Source: a virus
Length of the DNA stretch: 62,877 nt
Direction: 5' to 3' (one strand)
IMG/VR virus record: IMGVR_UViG_3300046167_000556
Span: 1-62,877 of that record
Shown: piece by piece, positions 512-62,877 of the stretch
Position numbering within the stretch: position 1 is the first letter of the stretch
Layout: every line of letters starts with the position of its first letter
Position numbers and translations under genes: made by a program
Notes under the pieces: generated by a model
The model's input: the letters and a program-made list of their open reading frames with translations, nothing else
What the model was told of the DNA's origin: nothing
Database searches by the model: none

Positions 512-549
512 TTTACAAACTGAATACGAACAACAATCGATAATATTAA
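512..549 (+). promoter_or_regulatory. Early-type promoter element P0
   Basis: TTTACAAACTGAATACGA, then GATAAT starting 27 nt after the first T. It lies just after the exonuclease stop and ahead of the 55-residue ORF, SSB and primase-helicase. It belongs to the 12-member family described under the 53-60 kb region. Confidence 0.7.
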
Positions 550-21481: not shown

Positions 21482-22927
21482 TTAATATGATGATTCTACA
21501 TAGTTTGTTGATACGGCGAATAATTCTTTTTTACCACCAACGTCTGTAATATTGTCAATAGAAAAAGTAGCGGTTACAAACATTCCTTTTATACCAGACA
21601 TCGATTGGCCGTATATTACTTCACCTGGTCGACCTAAACTATTGTTCTTTATATTACTTACGTATTTGTTTTCTTTTCTGTTAAAACCAGCTCTAGACTT
21701 AGTATAAGGAGGTCTAGTAACACCGAACACGGATTGGTAATTAGCTGGTAATACAGGTTGACCTGTAGCTGGGTTTAAAATATACTCTCCTTCATTGTAG
21801 CTTTTTATAGCTAAAGTTCTATCTGAAAAATTAGCTCCATTATCTACTCCTGTAGAGTCTGAGACAAAAGAATCTATTCTCCAACCATTACTTCCTTCAT
21901 ACCCTGCGGTTGAAAAGTTCTTAGATAAAGAAACTTTAGGATTAAAAACTGTTGTAACAGTTGACTCAACAGATGATCCATAAAATTTATTATACTCTTC
22001 GCCAAAGTAATGTTTCCAAAGCCCGTTTTTACCACTATTTGGTTCTCCGTAAGTTGAGTAAAAGTTATTTTTTAAACTAAAAATATTATCAGGCTTATAG
22101 CTATATCTACTTACCCATCCTTTAGATCCTTCGTCAAAAGCCAATGTATCGTAATCTATTCCATTATTGTTTTGTAAAGAAACAACGTAAGTTTTAGTGT
22201 GTACATCAAAACCGCCTATAACAGAACCTAAATTAGAAGAATTGAAATCTATCTTTATAAACTTATCTCTGAAAAAATCTTTCATACCATATGCTGATAT
22301 TTCAGTTATTCCATCAGAAGAAAGTCTTAGTACTGCATTTCTATTCCTGTCTGTAAAGTATTTTCTATATCCATAAACAGCGAAACTACCAGGGTCTTTA
22401 GATATTCCGTACTCTCCAGCATAAGGTACTACTTGCCCAATAACTTGAGAACCAGAAGTTGTAATAGCTCCACCTTCGGCCGAATAAATAGCATCTTTAT
22501 CTATCAATGCTTTGCTTACTTTGTTTTCTTGCAGTATAGTAAGGTTAGTATTTTCAGCATACAACTTTTGAATACTACCGTTTGATGGATCCAAGCTTCT
22601 AGTAATTTCTTCGCCAACCGGGAATTGGTTAGTGTTATTAACACCTGTTCTTGAATTAAATATGCCTGAGTATATTAAGCTATTAGATACTATAGATGCT
22701 TTATTAGTATCTGCTACTAAATAAGCTTTAGCTCCAAAATCTACAGAAGTATTATTATAACCGCCTCTAATTCTAGATTCTTCAATAATCCAGTTTTTAG
22801 CATCATTGGTTCCCAGCCCGGTTGTTTTGTACCACACAGGCACATTAGGTGGATTAGCATTATCTGCTGTTACGGTCTTACGTAGTAGAAAAGAGTTAAA
22901 ATATTTTACTTCTATAATAGCGCTCAT
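21482..22927 (-). CDS. Large tail/virion structural protein (481 aa)
   Basis: Begins MSAIIEVKYFNSFLLRKT, beta-rich with many Gly/Asn/Ser turns. It is in the tail cluster between the tail nozzle-like gene and the ejection proteins. The N-terminal phrase and size resemble tail or collar proteins of crAss-like phages, but this is memory-based and needs a profile search. Intact. Confidence 0.55.
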   Translation of the reverse strand: MSAIIEVKYFNSFLLRKTVTADNANPPNVPVWYKTTGLGTNDAKNWIIEESRIRGGYNNTSVDFGAKAYLVADTNKASIVSNSLIYSGIFNSRTGVNNTNQFPVGEEITRSLDPSNGSIQKLYAENTNLTILQENKVSKALIDKDAIYSAEGGAITTSGSQVIGQVVPYAGEYGISKDPGSFAVYGYRKYFTDRNRNAVLRLSSDGITEISAYGMKDFFRDKFIKIDFNSSNLGSVIGGFDVHTKTYVVSLQNNNGIDYDTLAFDEGSKGWVSRYSYKPDNIFSLKNNFYSTYGEPNSGKNGLWKHYFGEEYNKFYGSSVESTVTTVFNPKVSLSKNFSTAGYEGSNGWRIDSFVSDSTGVDNGANFSDRTLAIKSYNEGEYILNPATGQPVLPANYQSVFGVTRPPYTKSRAGFNRKENKYVSNIKNNSLGRPGEVIYGQSMSGIKGMFVTATFSIDNITDVGGKKELFAVSTNYVESSY

Positions 22928-41874: not shown

Positions 41875-42134
41875 TACAATACAACAACTACGTCTTGATT
41901 TTTTATAACGTGTAGCTTTTCGTTTTCTATTTCTATTCCATGTCCAGCATTCCTGTCGAAATAGATTGTATCGTTTTTATCAACACCTACAACTTCTTCA
42001 CCGATCGATACAATAGTAGCTTTGCGGTATCTTATATCCTCTCTACTTTTTTCATTAAGAATCAAACCACCTTTTGTTTTAGTGGTTGACTCTTTAATGA
42101 TTTTTATTATTAAGTTTCTACCTATTGCTTTCAT
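41874..42134 (-). CDS. groES: GroES co-chaperonin
   Basis: 86 residues: MKAIGRNLIIKIIKES, mobile-loop region TKTKGGLIL, DTIYFDRNAGHGIEIENEKL, ending QDVVVVL. This is the GroES beta-barrel with mobile loop that caps GroEL. Overlaps groEL by 17 nt, downstream of it. Its mobile loop has the Gly-Gly-Leu/Ile hinge that contacts GroEL. Confidence 0.85.
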   Translation of the reverse strand: MKAIGRNLIIKIIKESTTKTKGGLILNEKSREDIRYRKATIVSIGEEVVGVDKNDTIYFDRNAGHGIEIENEKLHVIKNQDVVVVL

Positions 42135-43672
42135 CTTCTACTCTTAAGTTATTGATTACACAATCGGTTGATAATATTGTAGTAGCAACTGACGCTGCGT
42201 TTTTTAAAGCACTTTTAGTAACTAATAAAGGATCTATAATACCTTTTTTAATCATACTTACATTTTTACCAGTTACAACATCTATTCCTTTACCTTTGCC
42301 TTGCGGATATACTTCATCCAAACCAGCATTTTTTAATATAGTTAAGTAAGGCGCTTTAATAGCTTCTAGTAACACTTTTTCATTTTCGTTAGATGCTTTT
42401 ACTAGTGTAGCCGCATTTAATAAAGCAATTCCTCCACCTGGTACAATACCTTCTTTTATAGCTGCTTTTGTGGCACACATTGCATCTTCTACTCTATCTT
42501 GTTTTTCTTTAAGCTCAACTTCAGAACTTGCACCTACTTTTATAACTGCTACTTTACAAGAAAGTAAACCTAATCTTTTTTCTAATCTATTTATGTGACC
42601 TGGTAAAACTTCGTTTTCTAGTTCGACCTTGATTTCATTTATTACTTCTTGAACTTCTTTAGATGTATTTTCTACTTGTATAATAGTCTCCTCGCTGTTC
42701 GTAATGGACTTTAAACAAGTTCCAAGCAATTCTACCTCTATCATATCTAAGTCGTCTCCAAGGTCTTCATTTACGACCGTAGCACCTGTTAGCAACGCTA
42801 AGTCTTGAAGCTTCTGCTTTCTATATATTCCGAAATCAGGTGTATCTATGATATTAACCTTAATATTACCTTTCATTTTATTCATAGCTAATGCAGATAC
42901 AACTTGTTCATCTGCTTCACCTATAATTAGTAAAGGTTTGTTGTTTTTTATAACGTATTCTAATACACTTTGTATTTTACGTATGTTTTCTATTTTGTTT
43001 TCAACTAGTAGTACTAACGGGTTTTCAAGTACAGCTTCTTTTTTGCTTTCGTTTGTTATAAAGTGAAAGTTTTTTAAAGGTTTATCAATAGATGCTCCGT
43101 TTATTACTTCGTAGCTTGTATTGCTGTCATTTGATACTTCCATTGTTACAACTCCGTTTTTACCAACTTCCTTAAAAGCTTCGGCAATAACATTACCTAA
43201 ATCTTTATCGTTGTTAGCTGAAATTGTAGCTACATTGTTGATCATATCGCCTTCTACAGGTACCTGCTAACTTTTCTAAGTATTTAATCACTTTCTTAGT
43301 AGCTTGTTCAATACCTTTTTTCATTTCTCGCGATCCGCTGTTATTTGTAGCGTACGCCTTTGAAAGAATTGAGTGTGCTAAGACTGTAGCTGTTGTTGTT
43401 CCATCTCCAGCTTCTTTAACAGTTTGCCTAGCAGCTTCTTTTAGAAGTGTTGCACCCATATTTTCAATAGGATCTCTCAGTGTTATTGAATTTGCTACAG
43501 TTACACCATCTTTAGTAATAACTGGTTTACCAAACTCGTTTTCTAGCATAACACACTTTCCGCTTGCTCCTAATGTAGAACTTACAGCTTTCGTTAGTTT
43601 GTCAATGCCCTTAAACACATTATTTTTTGCCTCATCGCCGAAGCTGAGGTTTTTTACAATTGCGTTACTCAT
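42118..43672 (-). CDS. groEL: GroEL chaperonin (about 517 aa), frame broken near 43263
   Basis: Two ORFs (43672-43214 and 43245-42118) join to 517 residues on removing one G (+ strand CC at 43263-43264); the bridge becomes LEKLAVPVEGDMINNVAT. Equatorial motif GDGTTT (89-94), apical domain with NIIDTPDFGIYRKQKLQDLA, and VEDAMCATKAAIKEGIVPGG before the C-terminal equatorial part. No GGM tail. Phage GroEL with GroES folds large virion proteins; here beside fibre and capsid genes. A broken chaperonin would be useless, so the break is an indel error. Confidence 0.87.
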
Positions 43673-52763: not shown

Positions 52764-52815
52764 ATAATGCGACGTTAGCCTCTTACTATTATATATAACT
52801 ACCTATTGTCGCACT
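52764..52815. promoter_or_regulatory. 52-bp palindromic element, copy A
   Basis: Left arm ATAATGCGAC(GT)TAGCCT, A/T spacer with TACTATTATATATAACTA, right arm with AGGTA in the complementary orientation ending GTCGCACT. Matches copies B (54247) and C (60730). It lies 44 nt upstream of the late operon's first ATG. Confidence 0.65.
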
Positions 52816-53083
52816 GCGGATCTTTAGAATTTTTAATAAAAAATTTTTTGTTAGATACAGGGAACTATGGGGTTATATACTATATTCTACTGACATAAAA
52901 AAATAATAAACCCGTTTTGTTTTGACCCAGTCCCCGTGTGTTTTTACGCTTTCGGGATAGGCTTTTGCCTTTCGTATGGTTTTCCTGCAATATGTTGAGG
53001 TATTCGGGACTTGTACTGCTGCGGCGTGCGCTTGATCCTGTGCTGGTCTGATCTGGTCCTGGTCTCTGATGCTTGTGCTTGAC

Positions 53084-53125: not shown

Positions 53126-53165
53126 TTTACAAAGTAGATACGAAGTATATTTGATAATATAAGTG
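53126..53165 (+). promoter_or_regulatory. Early promoter element P1
   Basis: TTTACAAAGTAGATACGA, GATAAT 27 nt downstream of the first T. It drives the 47-residue protein at 53205. Confidence 0.75.
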
Positions 53166-53383: not shown

Positions 53384-53425
53384 ATTACAAAGTAGATACG
53401 AAGTACTACTGATAATATAAATGTA
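53384..53425 (+). promoter_or_regulatory. Early promoter element P2
   Basis: ATTACAAAGTAGATACGA with GATAATATA at 27-nt distance, before the 106-residue gene. Confidence 0.72.
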
Positions 53426-53817: not shown

Positions 53818-53859
53818 TTTACAAACTGAATACGAATAGTAACTGATAATATATACGAA
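53818..53859 (+). promoter_or_regulatory. Early promoter element P3
   Basis: TTTACAAACTGAATACGA and GATAATATA at 27 nt, before the 49-residue gene at 53873. Confidence 0.75.
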
Positions 53860-54106: not shown

Positions 54107-54247
54107 ATGTACGAAAAAAAGATTATAACAAGACAAGACGGATCAACATACGAATCATACTTTTGGAAAACAGTTGCTGATCTGCAATGGACCGAAGCTC
54201 AAGAGCAGATGCAAAAAGCTATCGATCAGTTCGGAACCTCATCTTAA
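54107..54247 (+). CDS. Small early protein (46 aa), unknown
   Basis: MYEKKIITRQDGSTYESYFW, then KTVADLQWTEAQEQMQKAID. Last gene of this transcript; palindrome copy B starts at its stop codon. Confidence 0.55.
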   Translation: MYEKKIITRQDGSTYESYFWKTVADLQWTEAQEQMQKAIDQFGTSS

Positions 54248-54298
54248 TAATGCGACAGTAGCCTACTATTATAATATATAACAGGCTATTGTCACACT
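54247..54298. promoter_or_regulatory. 52-bp palindromic element, copy B
   Basis: ATAATGCGACAGTAGCCT, A/T spacer, AGGCTATTGTCACACT. The arms AGCCT/AGGCT and GCGAC/GTCAC pair, and the arrangement matches copies A and C. It lies right at the stop of the 46-residue gene, so here it may act as a terminator or as a protein site. Confidence 0.65.
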
Positions 54299-54467
54299 GT
54301 TTAATTTTCCCAGCCGTTACCTAAATAAAGTAACGAATATGGAGCCTGATCTTGAAATATGATCGGAAGAGTAGACTCCGTCCTACACCAAAGTGTATAG
54401 CATCACCTAACTTTCAGCGATCTATTAGATTTTCTAGTGAAAATTACCGTTTATTTGATGTATAGCA
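54299..54467 (+). other. Structured non-coding stretch (169 nt), possible small RNA
   Basis: No ORF on either strand looks coding. Inverted repeats include CGTTAC/GTAACG (54315-54336), GATC/GATC within GGAG...CTCC (54342-54379), and ACAC/GTGT around 54385. It lies between palindrome B and promoter P4. Function unknown; may be an RNA or part of the regulatory region. Confidence 0.3.
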
Positions 54468-54509
54468 TTTACAAAGTCGACACGAACACCTTTTGATAAT
54501 ATATATGAA
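54468..54509 (+). promoter_or_regulatory. Early promoter element P4
   Basis: TTTACAAAGTCGACACGA, GATAATATA at 27 nt, before the 54546 gene. It follows the words GTATAGCAT, as P1 does. Confidence 0.72.
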
Positions 54510-54733: not shown

Positions 54734-54774
54734 TTTACAAACTAAATACGATAGAGTATTGATAATAATAGTGT
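54734..54774 (+). promoter_or_regulatory. Early promoter element P5
   Basis: TTTACAAACTAAATACGA and GATAATAATA at 27 nt. Followed by a 60-nt A/T leader before the 54838 gene. Confidence 0.75.
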
Positions 54775-55389: not shown

Positions 55390-55613
55390 TGACAATGAAA
55401 GAAGCGTGCGAATACGTTAAAAACCAAAAAGTAGCGAATGCTATACGTCGTAACAATGTCGTTGCGATCAACGGATCTTGTAGTGGAGTAACGGAAAAAC
55501 AGTACAAAAGTATTAAGACCAAAGCAAAAGGTGCGGGGAGTCGCGGTAGAAAGCACTCACACACCGCTCTATGGAATCACTACAACGAACCAGTAAAACA
55601 ATTTACAAACTAA
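55386..55613 (+). CDS. Basic early protein (75 aa), unknown
   Basis: N-terminal MTMKEACEYVKNQKVANAIR resembles a helix-turn-helix start; the rest (KTKAKGAGSRGRKHSHTALW) is basic, a possible nucleic-acid binder. Its last codons (QFTN, stop) are the promoter element P6 read in frame. Confidence 0.5.
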   Translation: MMTMKEACEYVKNQKVANAIRRNNVVAINGSCSGVTEKQYKSIKTKAKGAGSRGRKHSHTALWNHYNEPVKQFTN

Positions 55614-55642
55614 ATACGATTACCGATCGATAATATATATGA
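55602..55642 (+). promoter_or_regulatory. Early promoter element P6, overlapping coding
   Basis: TTTACAAACTAAATACGA with GATAATATA 27 nt on; the first bases are the coding end of the preceding gene. It drives 55662 onward. Confidence 0.75.
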
Positions 55643-56192: not shown

Positions 56193-56402
56193 ATGGAAAA
56201 CAACATGGAAAATAAATTAGAAGAAATAGCACAAGGAGTGGCCGATGTCACACTAGAATTAATGGAAGATAGTGTTGATTGGCAACTAGCGGATTTCCCT
56301 CAAGACGGCGACGAATACGGTGCTATACACTCTAAAGTAATGCACCTTGCAATCAAGCAAATGTATTTACAAACTAAACACGATAGCGGATCGATAATAT
56401 AA
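56193..56402 (+). CDS. Acidic early protein (69 aa)
   Basis: Begins MENNMENKLEEIAQGVADVT, acidic, with DWQLADFPQDGDEYGAIHSK. Its last 12 codons overlay promoter P7 (MYLQTKHDSGSII). The start could also be the second Met at 56205. Confidence 0.5.
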   Translation: MENNMENKLEEIAQGVADVTLELMEDSVDWQLADFPQDGDEYGAIHSKVMHLAIKQMYLQTKHDSGSII

Positions 56403-57335: not shown

Positions 57336-57376
57336 TTTACAAACTAAATACGAACAACTATTGATAATATAATTGT
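57336..57376 (+). promoter_or_regulatory. Early promoter element P8
   Basis: TTTACAAACTAAATACGA and GATAATATA at 27 nt, immediately after a stop codon, ahead of the 57397 operon. Confidence 0.75.
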
Positions 57377-58554: not shown

Positions 58555-58595
58555 TTTACAAACTAGACACGATCAATAACTGATAATATATTTGT
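58555..58595 (+). promoter_or_regulatory. Early promoter element P9
   Basis: TTTACAAACTAGACACGA with GATAATATA at 27 nt, ending TATATTTG, a match to the Bacteroidota -7 box. The next ATG is only 6 nt after GATAATATA, so its mRNA may be leaderless. Confidence 0.75.
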
Positions 58596-59481: not shown

Positions 59482-59647
59482 TAATTTAGTATTAAAACAA
59501 ATTAACAATAACGTAAATGATAAACGCAGTATGGAGAGAGAAGAATTAATAAAATTAATAATGGAACGTATCTACACTAGACGCATATACGCTGAGAAAT
59601 TAGCTGACGACATATTGCGTTTATCTAGTTTTAAGCACAGTAAATAA
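59474..59647 (+). CDS. Small early protein (57 aa)
   Basis: MSNNLVLKQINNNVNDKRSM, then EREELIKLIMERIYTRRIYA; helical. Promoter P10 abuts the stop. Confidence 0.55.
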   Translation: MSNNLVLKQINNNVNDKRSMEREELIKLIMERIYTRRIYAEKLADDILRLSSFKHSK

Positions 59648-59680
59648 TTTACAAACACGAACAATAAACGATAATATAAT
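59648..59680 (+). promoter_or_regulatory. Early promoter element P10, shortened
   Basis: TTTACAAACACGAAC with GATAATATA at only 22 nt: five bases are missing between the boxes compared with the other 11 copies. It may be weaker or read differently. Confidence 0.6.
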
Positions 59681-60729: not shown

Positions 60730-60783
60730 AGTGTGACGATAGCTTGTTAATTATTTAATAGTAAGAAGCTAATGTCGCATTAT
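60730..60783. promoter_or_regulatory. Palindromic element, copy C, over the HTH gene start
   Basis: AGTGTGACGATAGCTTGTTA, A/T spacer with AATAGTA, AAGCTAATGTCGCATTAT. It is the reverse orientation of A and B. Its right arm includes the ATG of the HTH gene, so binding there could block both transcription and translation of that gene. Confidence 0.65.
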
Positions 60784-61392
60784 ACAAGAGATACATCTTA
60801 TTTAGAACGTCACAAAATAATATATAGACGAGATCCTACGACTGATAAACCCACAGATATATTTGAATGGGGTTATTATTACGAAGAGGGTACTCGACAA
60901 TGTTATGCATTGTTTAATTCTAAAGCTAAAATAAACACATATAGAGGACTTAAATGGCATTTGTATGTATTATGGTACTTGAATCCTCAAATGGATCAAG
61001 AAGGCTTTGAAGCACTGTCTAAATATATATGTAATAAGAAATGTGGTTTTGTTACTTTTAAAGTTTCAGAACAGTTATTACAGAGCATGATATACGACGT
61101 ATCTTTAATGGATTTGGAAACTCCACCTCCTAATAAGTTGCGTAAAGTAATATTCAAAGACTTTACCGGTCTTGAAATGCGACAAAAGCTTGCTATAGTA
61201 GGTACGTTAGTAGGAAGATCTAAAATATCTAATAGTGAAATTTACGATGCAATGATTTTGATTAATCACGCTGACGAAAAAATAACTATGACAAAGCTAT
61301 CAAACGTTTTAGGTTGTTCTACTAGAACTATATATAGAAATATGAGTAATGAACTTAAAAAAGAAAAAGAACTACTAAACCAACAATTATGA
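60772..61392 (+). CDS. HTH-containing protein, candidate transcription regulator (206 aa)
   Basis: The ATG is in palindrome C. The C-terminal ~40 residues contain TMTKLSNVLGCSTRTIYRNM, a helix-turn-helix with a typical recognition helix (CSTRTIYRNM). The N-terminal 150 residues are alpha/beta with Cys (YICNKKCGF) and no clear family. Placed just before the sigma gene, it could regulate itself and the late operon, both of which carry the palindrome. Confidence 0.6.
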   Translation: MSHYTRDTSYLERHKIIYRRDPTTDKPTDIFEWGYYYEEGTRQCYALFNSKAKINTYRGLKWHLYVLWYLNPQMDQEGFEALSKYICNKKCGFVTFKVSEQLLQSMIYDVSLMDLETPPPNKLRKVIFKDFTGLEMRQKLAIVGTLVGRSKISNSEIYDAMILINHADEKITMTKLSNVLGCSTRTIYRNMSNELKKEKELLNQQL

Positions 61393-61499
61393 CACAAGAA
61401 TTCAACGAATGGATGGCGAAGATAGGTAATATACACTATGCTAATGACAATTTAATGGCAAAAGCATTTAATAGGATAGAAGAACATGAAAAAATATAA
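61389..61499 (+). CDS. Micro-protein (36 aa)
   Basis: MTQEFNEWMAKIGNIHYAND: helical, Trp/Phe-rich. Overlaps the HTH gene stop and the sigma gene start, so it is in the same message. Confidence 0.5.
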   Translation: MTQEFNEWMAKIGNIHYANDNLMAKAFNRIEEHEKI

Positions 61500-62247
61500 C
61501 ATACAAAACTATGTAAGATACAAAGCTGATGTTAAACAATCTATTGCTCGGCTTGAAGGTAAATTTTGGGACGAGTATACTAAAGAAGAACTAATTATAA
61601 AGTTTTTACCTTTAACAGAGAACATAGCTAGAAAGTTTTCAACTTCTGATCAAGCATCAGGAGTTTTAAGTATTAATGACTTAATACAAGAAGGTTCTAT
61701 AGGTTTAGTTAAAGCTATAGGTAAACTAGATATGAACAGAGTAATTGAATCTAACGATCCTGAGAAGACATTAAAATCATTCTTAGCTAAACGTATTAAA
61801 GGATCAATTAGACGCGCTATAGACATTAATAGAGGTAATATTCGTATACCCGAGTACAAGTTAAATGAGATAAGAAAAGACTTTGGTAAAGATAAAGCTT
61901 TAGTAGCTATGTTTTTTAATAGTATATTTTTGAGTATTGATATACCAGCTAATGAAGATGACGATAACTTTGCGTTTCAAATACCAGATGAATCTGAACC
62001 TTATAATATAGCGTTGATGAATGTTTACTTAACTAGCTTATGTAAAAAGTATTTAAGCGATAATGAATATGAAGTACTAAGGCTTAGCTATGGGCTTGAC
62101 TGCGAAAAACTACCAGGCAAAGAAATAGCTGAGGTATTAAATATGACTGGCCCTAGTGGTTATGTAAGAGTTTCAGAGCTTAAAAAGCAAGCTGTGAATA
62201 AATTAATCGACTCTGTTGACCACACGCAAGTGCTTGACTTCCTTTAG
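61486..62247 (+). CDS. Sigma-70 family RNA polymerase sigma factor (253 aa)
   Basis: Region 2: FLPLTENIARKFSTSDQASG, INDLIQEGSIGLVKAIGKLD and FLAKRIKGSIRRAIDINRGN-IRIP. Region 4: YLSDNEYEVLRLSYGLDCEK followed by GKEIAEVLN and YVRVSELKKQAV. It redirects host RNA polymerase. The C-terminal region 4 would read the -35-like TTTACA box of the 12 early promoters; this is an inference. No anti-sigma gene seen. Confidence 0.85.
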   Translation: MKKYNIQNYVRYKADVKQSIARLEGKFWDEYTKEELIIKFLPLTENIARKFSTSDQASGVLSINDLIQEGSIGLVKAIGKLDMNRVIESNDPEKTLKSFLAKRIKGSIRRAIDINRGNIRIPEYKLNEIRKDFGKDKALVAMFFNSIFLSIDIPANEDDDNFAFQIPDESEPYNIALMNVYLTSLCKKYLSDNEYEVLRLSYGLDCEKLPGKEIAEVLNMTGPSGYVRVSELKKQAVNKLIDSVDHTQVLDFL

Positions 62248-62320: not shown

Positions 62321-62834
62321 ATGAACATAAACGAAAAATTAGCGACCATCCAAACGGAGTTCAAATCGAAAAAAAGTAGATTTAACTCATTCGGCAAGTA
62401 CAACTTCAGATCCGCCGAAGACATTCTTGAAGCAACAAAACCCTTTCTATTAAGGTTAGGAGTATCAGTAACAGTCAGTGAAGAATTAATTGACACAAGT
62501 GACTTTCCAATTATTAAGTCAACAGCTACAGTAACCGATGGCAAAGATGCTATACATGCTACAGCTATTGTCGGTGTAGACTTATTACAAAAAGGAATGC
62601 AAATGCCGCAAAAGTTCGGTAGTGCTTCTAGTTATGGAAAAAAGTATGCACTTGGAAATTTATTTCTAATAGATGACACTCAAGATGCCGATCACGGTAA
62701 AGCTGAAAAAGCTAAACCTAAATTAGAGGGTCAAGCGTCTAGACAAAGCTAAAGCTTTCCTAAAAGCAGGGGGAAGTTTAGATGCTATTAAAGGTAAATA
62801 TGAAATACCTGCTGCAACTTTAAAAACCTTATGA
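62321..62834 (+). CDS. ERF-family single-strand annealing protein (about 170 aa), frame broken near 62729
   Basis: N-terminal ERF core: MNINEKLATIQTEFKSKKSR, YNFRSAEDILEATKPFLLRL, ending PQKFGSASSYGKKYALGNLF, the classic ERF signature. One G too many in GGG at 62728-62730 stops it at 62752. Without it, the end reads RLDKAKAFLKAGGSLDAIKG, then KYEIPAATLKTL, a standard C-terminal helix, and its stop overlaps the exonuclease ATG as ATGA. ERF anneals single strands in phage recombination. Confidence 0.87.
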
Positions 62835-62877
62835 CAAGTAAAGAAAAAAAAGAAATCTTAAAAAGATTAGAAAGTGA
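62831..62877 (+). CDS. Exonuclease N-terminus (continues at base 1)
   Basis: MTSKEKKEILKRLES plus two bases; the codon is completed by base 1 and the reading continues through DTRNSKVYKELSGGE into the CDS at 1-508. It shows that the window ends are contiguous. Confidence 0.75.
   Translation, partial: MTSKEKKEILKRLES

What the first reader, a model, noticed from the sequence alone, without database searches (positions are those of the whole stretch)
61486..62247. A phage sigma factor matched to a phage-specific promoter family
The genome has one sigma-70-like protein and no phage RNA polymerase, and one dominant early motif. A dedicated sigma reading TTTACA...GATAAT is the simplest link. The sigma gene itself is not preceded by the element, so it may be made first by the host factor.
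Basis: inference. Interest (0 to 1): 0.65.

Follow-up and report, generated by a model that had tools for sequence, protein, structure and literature searches.

The report
Phage sigma factor and its promoters
A large group of uncultured marine phages, apparently of flavobacteria, carries its own sigma factor, and wherever that gene occurs the phage's early genes are preceded by the same unusual three-part promoter, so the phage very probably redirects its host's RNA polymerase with it.

Summary
The 253-aa ORF at 61486-62247 is a sigma-70-family factor (regions 2 and 4). The window has ten good copies of a + strand element plus one degenerate copy (chance expectation 0.01). It is not TTTACA/GATAAT with sigma-70 spacing: those hexamers lie 21 bp apart. 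Across 203 unique sigma loci from uncultured phages it resolves into three boxes: TTACAAAC (-38 to -31), AAyACGA (-28 to -22) and GATAATATAAAT (from -12). There are 1076 sites on the sigma-gene strand against 3 on the other. All 162 sigma loci with at least 3 kb upstream carry it; 24 terminase relatives without a detected sigma have at most one stray match. Start codons pile up 12 bp after the G of GATAAT, which fits GATAAT as the -10 box. In 13 relatives the sigma gene itself follows the element, but not in this window. A co-transcribed helix-turn-helix protein, nearly always next to sigma, is absent from some genomes that keep the element, so sigma is the common factor. Unresolved: what reads the -25 box, and what makes the first sigma. 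Not biochemically proven. A known kind (SPO1-like phage sigma), but a new, clade-wide variant.

The parts
61486..62247 (+). phage sigma-70-family factor, 253 aa (regions 2 and 4 recognisable)
60772..61392 (+). 206-aa protein with C-terminal helix-turn-helix, co-directional and immediately upstream of sigma; found with sigma in 189 of 203 unique loci, often overlapping it by 4 or 14 bp; possible co-factor, role unknown
62321..62752 (+). Erf-like single-strand annealing protein downstream of sigma (conserved neighbour)
512..544 (+). promoter element upstream of the replication genes (next ATG at motif position 62)
53126..53158 (+). promoter element (next ATG at position 80)
53384..53416 (+). promoter element (next ATG at position 81)
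53818..53850 (+). promoter element (next ATG at position 56)
54468..54500 (+). promoter element
54734..54766 (+). promoter element (ORF of at least 40 aa at position 105)
55602..55634 (+). promoter element (next ATG at position 61)
56366..56398 (+). promoter element
57336..57368 (+). promoter element (next ATG at position 62)
58555..58587 (+). promoter element (next ORF at position 146)
59643..59675 (+). degenerate element (17.5 bits; box 1 lost, ACGA-N9-GATAATATA kept), at the head of the gene run that ends in the helix-turn-helix gene and sigma; next ATG at position 57

Best explanation
The phage makes a dedicated sigma-70-family factor. It joins the host core RNA polymerase and directs it to a phage-only promoter family: GATAATATAAAT as the -10 region, start about 6 nt after GATAAT, and TTACAAAC at the -35 position. 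A further AAyACGA box at -28 to -22 is read by a part not yet identified. These promoters drive the many small early genes and the replication module, all on the sigma-gene strand; the late genes on the other strand have none. Shown here: the sigma homology and fold, the promoter family, its strand and position, and its co-occurrence with the gene. Inferred: physical recognition, which box is read by which domain, and timing. The element stands before sigma itself in some relatives, so positive autoregulation is likely there.
For: Sigma identity: SigA 1.5e-10; FliA over residues 25-241, 9e-10; all top PDB folds are sigma factors. Element: 1076 sites on the sigma strand against 3 on the reverse in 203 unique loci; 1029 upstream of sigma (0.69 per kb) against 47 downstream (0.03 per kb), and 162 of 162 loci with at least 3 kb upstream have at least one, 138 of 141 with at least 5 kb have at least three. 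Presence/absence: five of seven sigma-bearing records have 5-22 matches, while none of 24 records without sigma has more than one (Fisher p about 1e-4). Of the other two sigma-bearing records, G001 uses a variant box (CACGGACTTA then GATAATATA, 7 copies) and G002 is cut about 1.4 kb upstream of sigma. Three sigma-less full-length genomes show no promoter-like dyad at all, only palindromes or AT runs. Twelve sigma-less records have no region-2 match (controls rang). The helix-turn-helix neighbour is missing from the whole record in five sigma-bearing genomes that keep the element. Start codons peak at position 40 and are rare before 38. The -10 is near-invariant and so are residues around region 2.3-2.4 (K102, R103, G106, R109, R110). 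Sigma gene led by the element in 13 loci, nine with the ATG at position 40-43. Published flavobacterial sigma-A motif is TAnnTTTG and the listed alternative sigmas are sigma-54 and ECF types (PMC9723704), none like GATAAT.
Against: No transcription data. The phages without sigma form their own lineages, so co-occurrence is not fully independent of descent. Residue-level covariation did not single out sigma region 4: an apparent link of residue 225 with position -23 in 43 genomes did not stay on top in 118, and phylogenetically corrected and partial Mantel tests gave no clear assignment. Closely similar region 4 helices go with different -35 boxes in some pairs. Two conserved upstream boxes are one more than a sigma factor normally needs.
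Confidence: 0.85

Rival explanations
1. Composite promoter: phage sigma reads -10 (and perhaps one upstream box), and the co-transcribed helix-turn-helix protein binds the other upstream box as an activator, in the manner of T4 MotA.
For: The helix-turn-helix gene is found with sigma in 189 of 203 loci, often overlapping it, and is not found without sigma in 32 records tested, apart from one weak fragmentary hit of 64 residues. Two upstream boxes in register 11 bp apart.
Against: Five whole records lack the protein and keep the element; four of them have a changed box 1 with box 2 kept, and L157 has box 1 kept with box 2 lost, so its absence maps to neither box. Covariation tests did not favour it.
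Confidence: 0.25
2. The elements are read by the host's own sigma factor, helped or not by a phage activator, and the phage sigma serves another set (late or host genes).
For: They sit on early-type small genes, which must start from something present at infection.
Against: Flavobacterial sigma-A box is TAnnTTTG (PMC9723704). Sigma-less relatives, with the same kind of hosts as far as known, lack the element. 13 sigma genes carry it. No other promoter family was found in the window's non-coding DNA.
Confidence: 0.07
3. The repeats are not promoters but binding sites for a repressor, replication or packaging protein.
For: Strict repeat family, one orientation.
Against: Almost always upstream of genes on the coding strand, fixed GATAATA with start codons peaking 12 nt after its G and again about 10 and 20 nt further on, strong depletion downstream of sigma and on the other strand.
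Confidence: 0.04
4. Sigma is carried in the virion and acts immediately, so the element family is truly the earliest class and no host-type promoter is needed.
For: The small early genes all carry the element and no TTG-N-TAnnTTTG host-type promoter was found on the + strand in 51-62.9 kb.
Against: Sigma lies with replication genes, not with the structural genes; no proteome.
Confidence: 0.1

Closest known systems
Bacillus phage SPO1 gp28 and gp34 (phage-encoded sigma factors for middle and late genes; PMC4496689)
   Same: Phage sigma replaces the host sigma on host core enzyme and reads a phage-only promoter family.
   Different: Not compared by sequence here; different host phylum; one sigma found here, tied to early/replication genes; promoter sequence and the third box differ.
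FliA (sigma-28) and other group 3 sigma factors
   Same: Full-length sequence match to FliA 1rp3 (E 9e-10), similar size, and a -10 with GATAA resembling the FliA -10 (the latter from general knowledge).
   Different: Scores far below the FliA/WhiG family cut-off (43 against 189.6 bits).
T4 MotA/AsiA middle promoters
   Same: An activator box near -30 combined with a -10 would resemble the third box here (general knowledge).
   Different: Here the phage encodes a full sigma; the linked helix-turn-helix protein is absent from some genomes with the element.
Sigma factors found in cultured phages (Synechococcus, Klebsiella, Enterococcus, Microcystis phages)
   Same: Phage-borne sigma-70-family genes.
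   Different: At most about 32% identity; no close relative among 50,697 phage records.

Membership tests
sigma-70 family | region 2 (core binding, -10 recognition) | tested here: met
   PF04542 above cut-off; 34 of 37 relatives
sigma-70 family | region 4 (helix-turn-helix) | tested here: met
   PF04545 E=5e-4 in the window, below cut-off on its own; 29 of 37 relatives match; AF2 helices 175-243
sigma-70 family | sigma fold | tested here: met
   Foldseek probability 1.00 to many sigma factors; TM-scores are low (about 0.3) as the model is compared over several loosely placed domains
sigma-70 family | binds core RNA polymerase and directs initiation | not testable with these tools
   needs biochemistry
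FliA/WhiG group 3 | family profile above curated cut-off | tested here: not met
   TIGR02479 43 bits against 189.6
SPO1-gp28-like phage sigma regulation | phage sigma with a cognate phage-only promoter family | tested here: met
   co-occurrence, strand and position; recognition itself inferred
SPO1-gp28-like phage sigma regulation | sigma made from host-type promoters, switches later genes on | not testable with these tools
   no host-type TTG-N-TAnnTTTG promoter seen upstream of sigma; timing unknown
T4 MotA-type composite promoter | activator bound at the upstream box | tested here: inconclusive
   linked helix-turn-helix gene, but absent from some genomes with the element; covariation unclear
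T7-like phage with its own RNA polymerase | phage RNA polymerase gene | tested here: inconclusive
   no hit, but the control for PF00940 did not ring

The most novel reading that the evidence does not exclude
A promoter class with three conserved boxes (-35 TTACAAAC, -25 AAyACGA, -10 GATAATA) in which the -25 box is read by a component not known from other sigma-70-type promoters: either the co-transcribed helix-turn-helix protein working as a sigma partner, or the phage sigma itself placed unusually.
Probability: 0.3. Interest if true: 0.7.

Novelty: new variant of a known kind. Interest (0 to 1): 0.55.

Why it matters
It gives a defined sigma-promoter pair for a very common but uncultured marine phage group, probably infecting Flavobacteriia, whose own promoters (TAnnTTTG) differ from the textbook. 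More than a thousand sites with natural variants in box 1 and at -13 make the recognition code testable, and the element lets one map the regulon and operons of hundreds of uncultured phages by sequence alone.

Tried and rejected
TTTACA and GATAAT as a normal sigma-70 pair: spacing is 21 bp. Similarity of AATACGA to the T7 promoter: no single-subunit RNAP found, though the control was silent. 2336-aa protein as a phage RNA polymerase: it is a tail fibre with an S74 peptidase domain. TATAAAT rather than GATAAT as -10: start codons at position 40 would lie upstream of the start. Sigma residue 225 reads position -23: strong in 43 genomes (adjusted R2 0.90), not sustained in 118. Helix-turn-helix protein reads box 1: its loss maps to neither box. 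Phylogenetic regression and partial Mantel tests: no clear assignment. Host-type TAnnTTTG promoters: not enriched on the sigma strand. PDB fold search for the helix-turn-helix protein: only its C-terminal helix-turn-helix resembles known folds, weakly; one significant hit to an unnamed viral protein. Papers on this sigma or promoter family: none found in the searches made.

Full report
What was checked. The ORF at 61486-62247 (253 aa, + strand) is real and is a sigma-70-family protein: Sigma70_r2 above its Pfam cut-off, Sigma70_r4 just below, PHROG 351 'RNA polymerase sigma factor' at 4e-22, the general NCBIfam sigma model above its cut-off. A profile of 37 relatives matches solved sigma factors (SigA 1.5e-10; FliA over nearly the full length, 9e-10) and the AF2 model (mean pLDDT 78) retrieves only sigma factors at the top of a PDB fold search. 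It is not a member of the FliA/WhiG family by its curated cut-off.

The genome. The window is the whole record. Its two ends join in frame across an exonuclease gene that 65 matches in loci of relatives span intact, so it appears to be a complete, circularly permuted genome of 62,877 bp. Terminase relatives infect Flavobacterium, Cellulophaga, Tenacibaculum and Maribacter, so a flavobacterial host is likely, though inferred. No phage RNA polymerase was recognised among the large ORFs; the single-subunit RNAP search was negative but its control did not ring.

The motif in the window. Ten + strand copies fit TTTACAAACTnnnTACGA-N9-GATAAT with up to three mismatches; 0.01 are expected in shuffles. 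TTTACA and GATAAT are 21 bp apart, so they are not an ordinary -35/-10 pair. A count of spaced dyads in non-coding DNA, made without using the motif, returns it as the top signal. Nine copies precede small genes at 53-59 kb, one (512) precedes the replication genes, and a degenerate one (59643) heads the run of genes that ends in the helix-turn-helix gene and sigma. None lies on the late strand.

The family. Five searches of viral contigs gave 203 unique sigma loci. A profile trained on the first 81 loci, adapted to each genome, finds 1076 sites on the sigma-gene strand and 3 on the opposite strand. Pooled, the element is TTACAAAC (-38 to -31), AAyACGA (-28 to -22) and GATAATATAAAT from -12. 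The first box sits where a -35 element belongs if GATAAT is the -10. All 162 loci with at least 3 kb upstream of sigma hold at least one site and 138 of 141 with at least 5 kb hold three or more; density is 0.69 per kb upstream of sigma and 0.03 downstream.

GATAAT is the -10. The nearest start codons peak at motif position 40 (12 bp after the G of GATAAT), with further peaks at 50-52 and 57-64, and few before 38. That suits starts about 6 nt after GATAAT, some of them leaderless. In 13 loci the sigma gene itself is the gene served, nine of them with the ATG at position 40-43; the strongly conserved N-terminus MKKYNIQN leaves little room for another start. In this window it is not so.

Presence and absence. 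Among 26 records of the terminase family, seven carry sigma and 19 do not; the element pattern is found 5-22 times in five of the seven and not more than once in any of the 19. The other two sigma-bearing records are explained: G001 has its own variant, CACGGACTTA with the same GATAATATA, seven times, and G002 ends about 1.4 kb upstream of sigma. The single good match in a sigma-less record, G005, is near the end of a 48-kb fragment. Five further isolates (Elemovirus, Callevirus phi38:1 and Calle_1, Baltivirus phi13:2, Gundelvirus) have no match and no sigma region 2 (controls positive). Three full-length sigma-less genomes show only palindromes or AT runs as their top dyads. Lineage is a confounder, but the association is complete in the data at hand.

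The neighbour. A 206-aa protein with a C-terminal helix-turn-helix (AF2 pLDDT 90; HTH_11 weakly) is found with sigma in 189 of 203 loci, overlapping it by 14 bp in 84 and by 4 bp in 28. It was not found without sigma apart from one weak fragmentary hit. Yet five whole records (G004, G026-G029) lack it and keep sigma and the element. In L027, L035, L037, L103 and L154 box 1 is TTCGAAA-like and box 2 is intact; in L157 (and in L152, with only two sites) box 1 is intact and box 2 is degraded. So the protein's absence maps to neither box.

Which part reads what. This was tried and not settled. Mutual information with average-product correction in 41 genomes put sigma residue 225 (start of the region 4.2 helix) against position -23 on top among upstream-box positions, and regression in 43 genomes gave adjusted R2 0.90. 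With 118 genomes the link weakened, and neither phylogenetic regression nor partial Mantel tests assigned box 1, box 2 or -13 to one protein. Some pairs with nearly the same region 4.2 helix have different first boxes.

Host comparison. In Flavobacterium psychrophilum the main sigma reads TAnnTTTG, and the other sigma factors listed are one sigma-54 and seven ECF types (PMC9723704). None of the motifs described in the passages read resembles GATAAT. No TTG-N-TAnnTTTG host-type promoter was found on the + strand between about 51 and 62.9 kb, so how the first sigma is made is open: a divergent host promoter, leaky read-through, or sigma carried in the virion.

Novelty. Phage sigma factors with their own promoters are known (SPO1 gp28, gp34; PMC4496689), and sigma genes occur in fewer than 15% of the phage genomes of one survey (PMC9429907). 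This sigma has no relative above about 32% identity among 50,697 phage records, and no paper on this pair was found in the open-access library searched. It is a new variant of a known kind: clade-wide and with an extra conserved box.

Noticed in passing
window 62831-62877 joined to 1-508: The two ends of the record join in frame through an exonuclease gene, so the 62,877-bp record appears to be a complete circularly permuted phage genome although it is classed as linear.
   Followed up: yes
L010 and L013 (IMGVR_UViG_3300047157_000162, 129,537 bp): One contig holds two different copies of sigma and of the helix-turn-helix gene about 62 kb apart: two related phage genomes joined in one contig, by assembly or in nature.
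   Followed up: no
window 52764-52816 and 54247-54299: Two 81% identical copies of a stem-loop (GCGACAGTAGCC...GGCTATTGTCAC) near the start of the early region; possibly terminators.
   Followed up: no
window 42118-43245 (-): Gene for a Cpn60-like chaperonin (Pfam E 5e-28); the related MW202828 also has GroEL and GroES-like genes.
   Followed up: no
window 21482-22927 (-): C-terminal domain of the crAss-phage muzzle protein above its Pfam cut-off, linking these podophages to crassvirus-like tails.
   Followed up: no
window 58555-58594: This element is followed at once by TATATTTG, a match to the flavobacterial host -7 box TAnnTTTG; a dual promoter is possible.
   Followed up: no
all sigma loci: The base just before GATAAT (-13) tends to be the same within a genome and to differ between genomes, a possible sign of co-evolving recognition.
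   Followed up: partly
L090 (JAAGZR010000268.1): A contig binned as an Aliivibrio MAG is a phage of this group, probably mis-binned.
   Followed up: no
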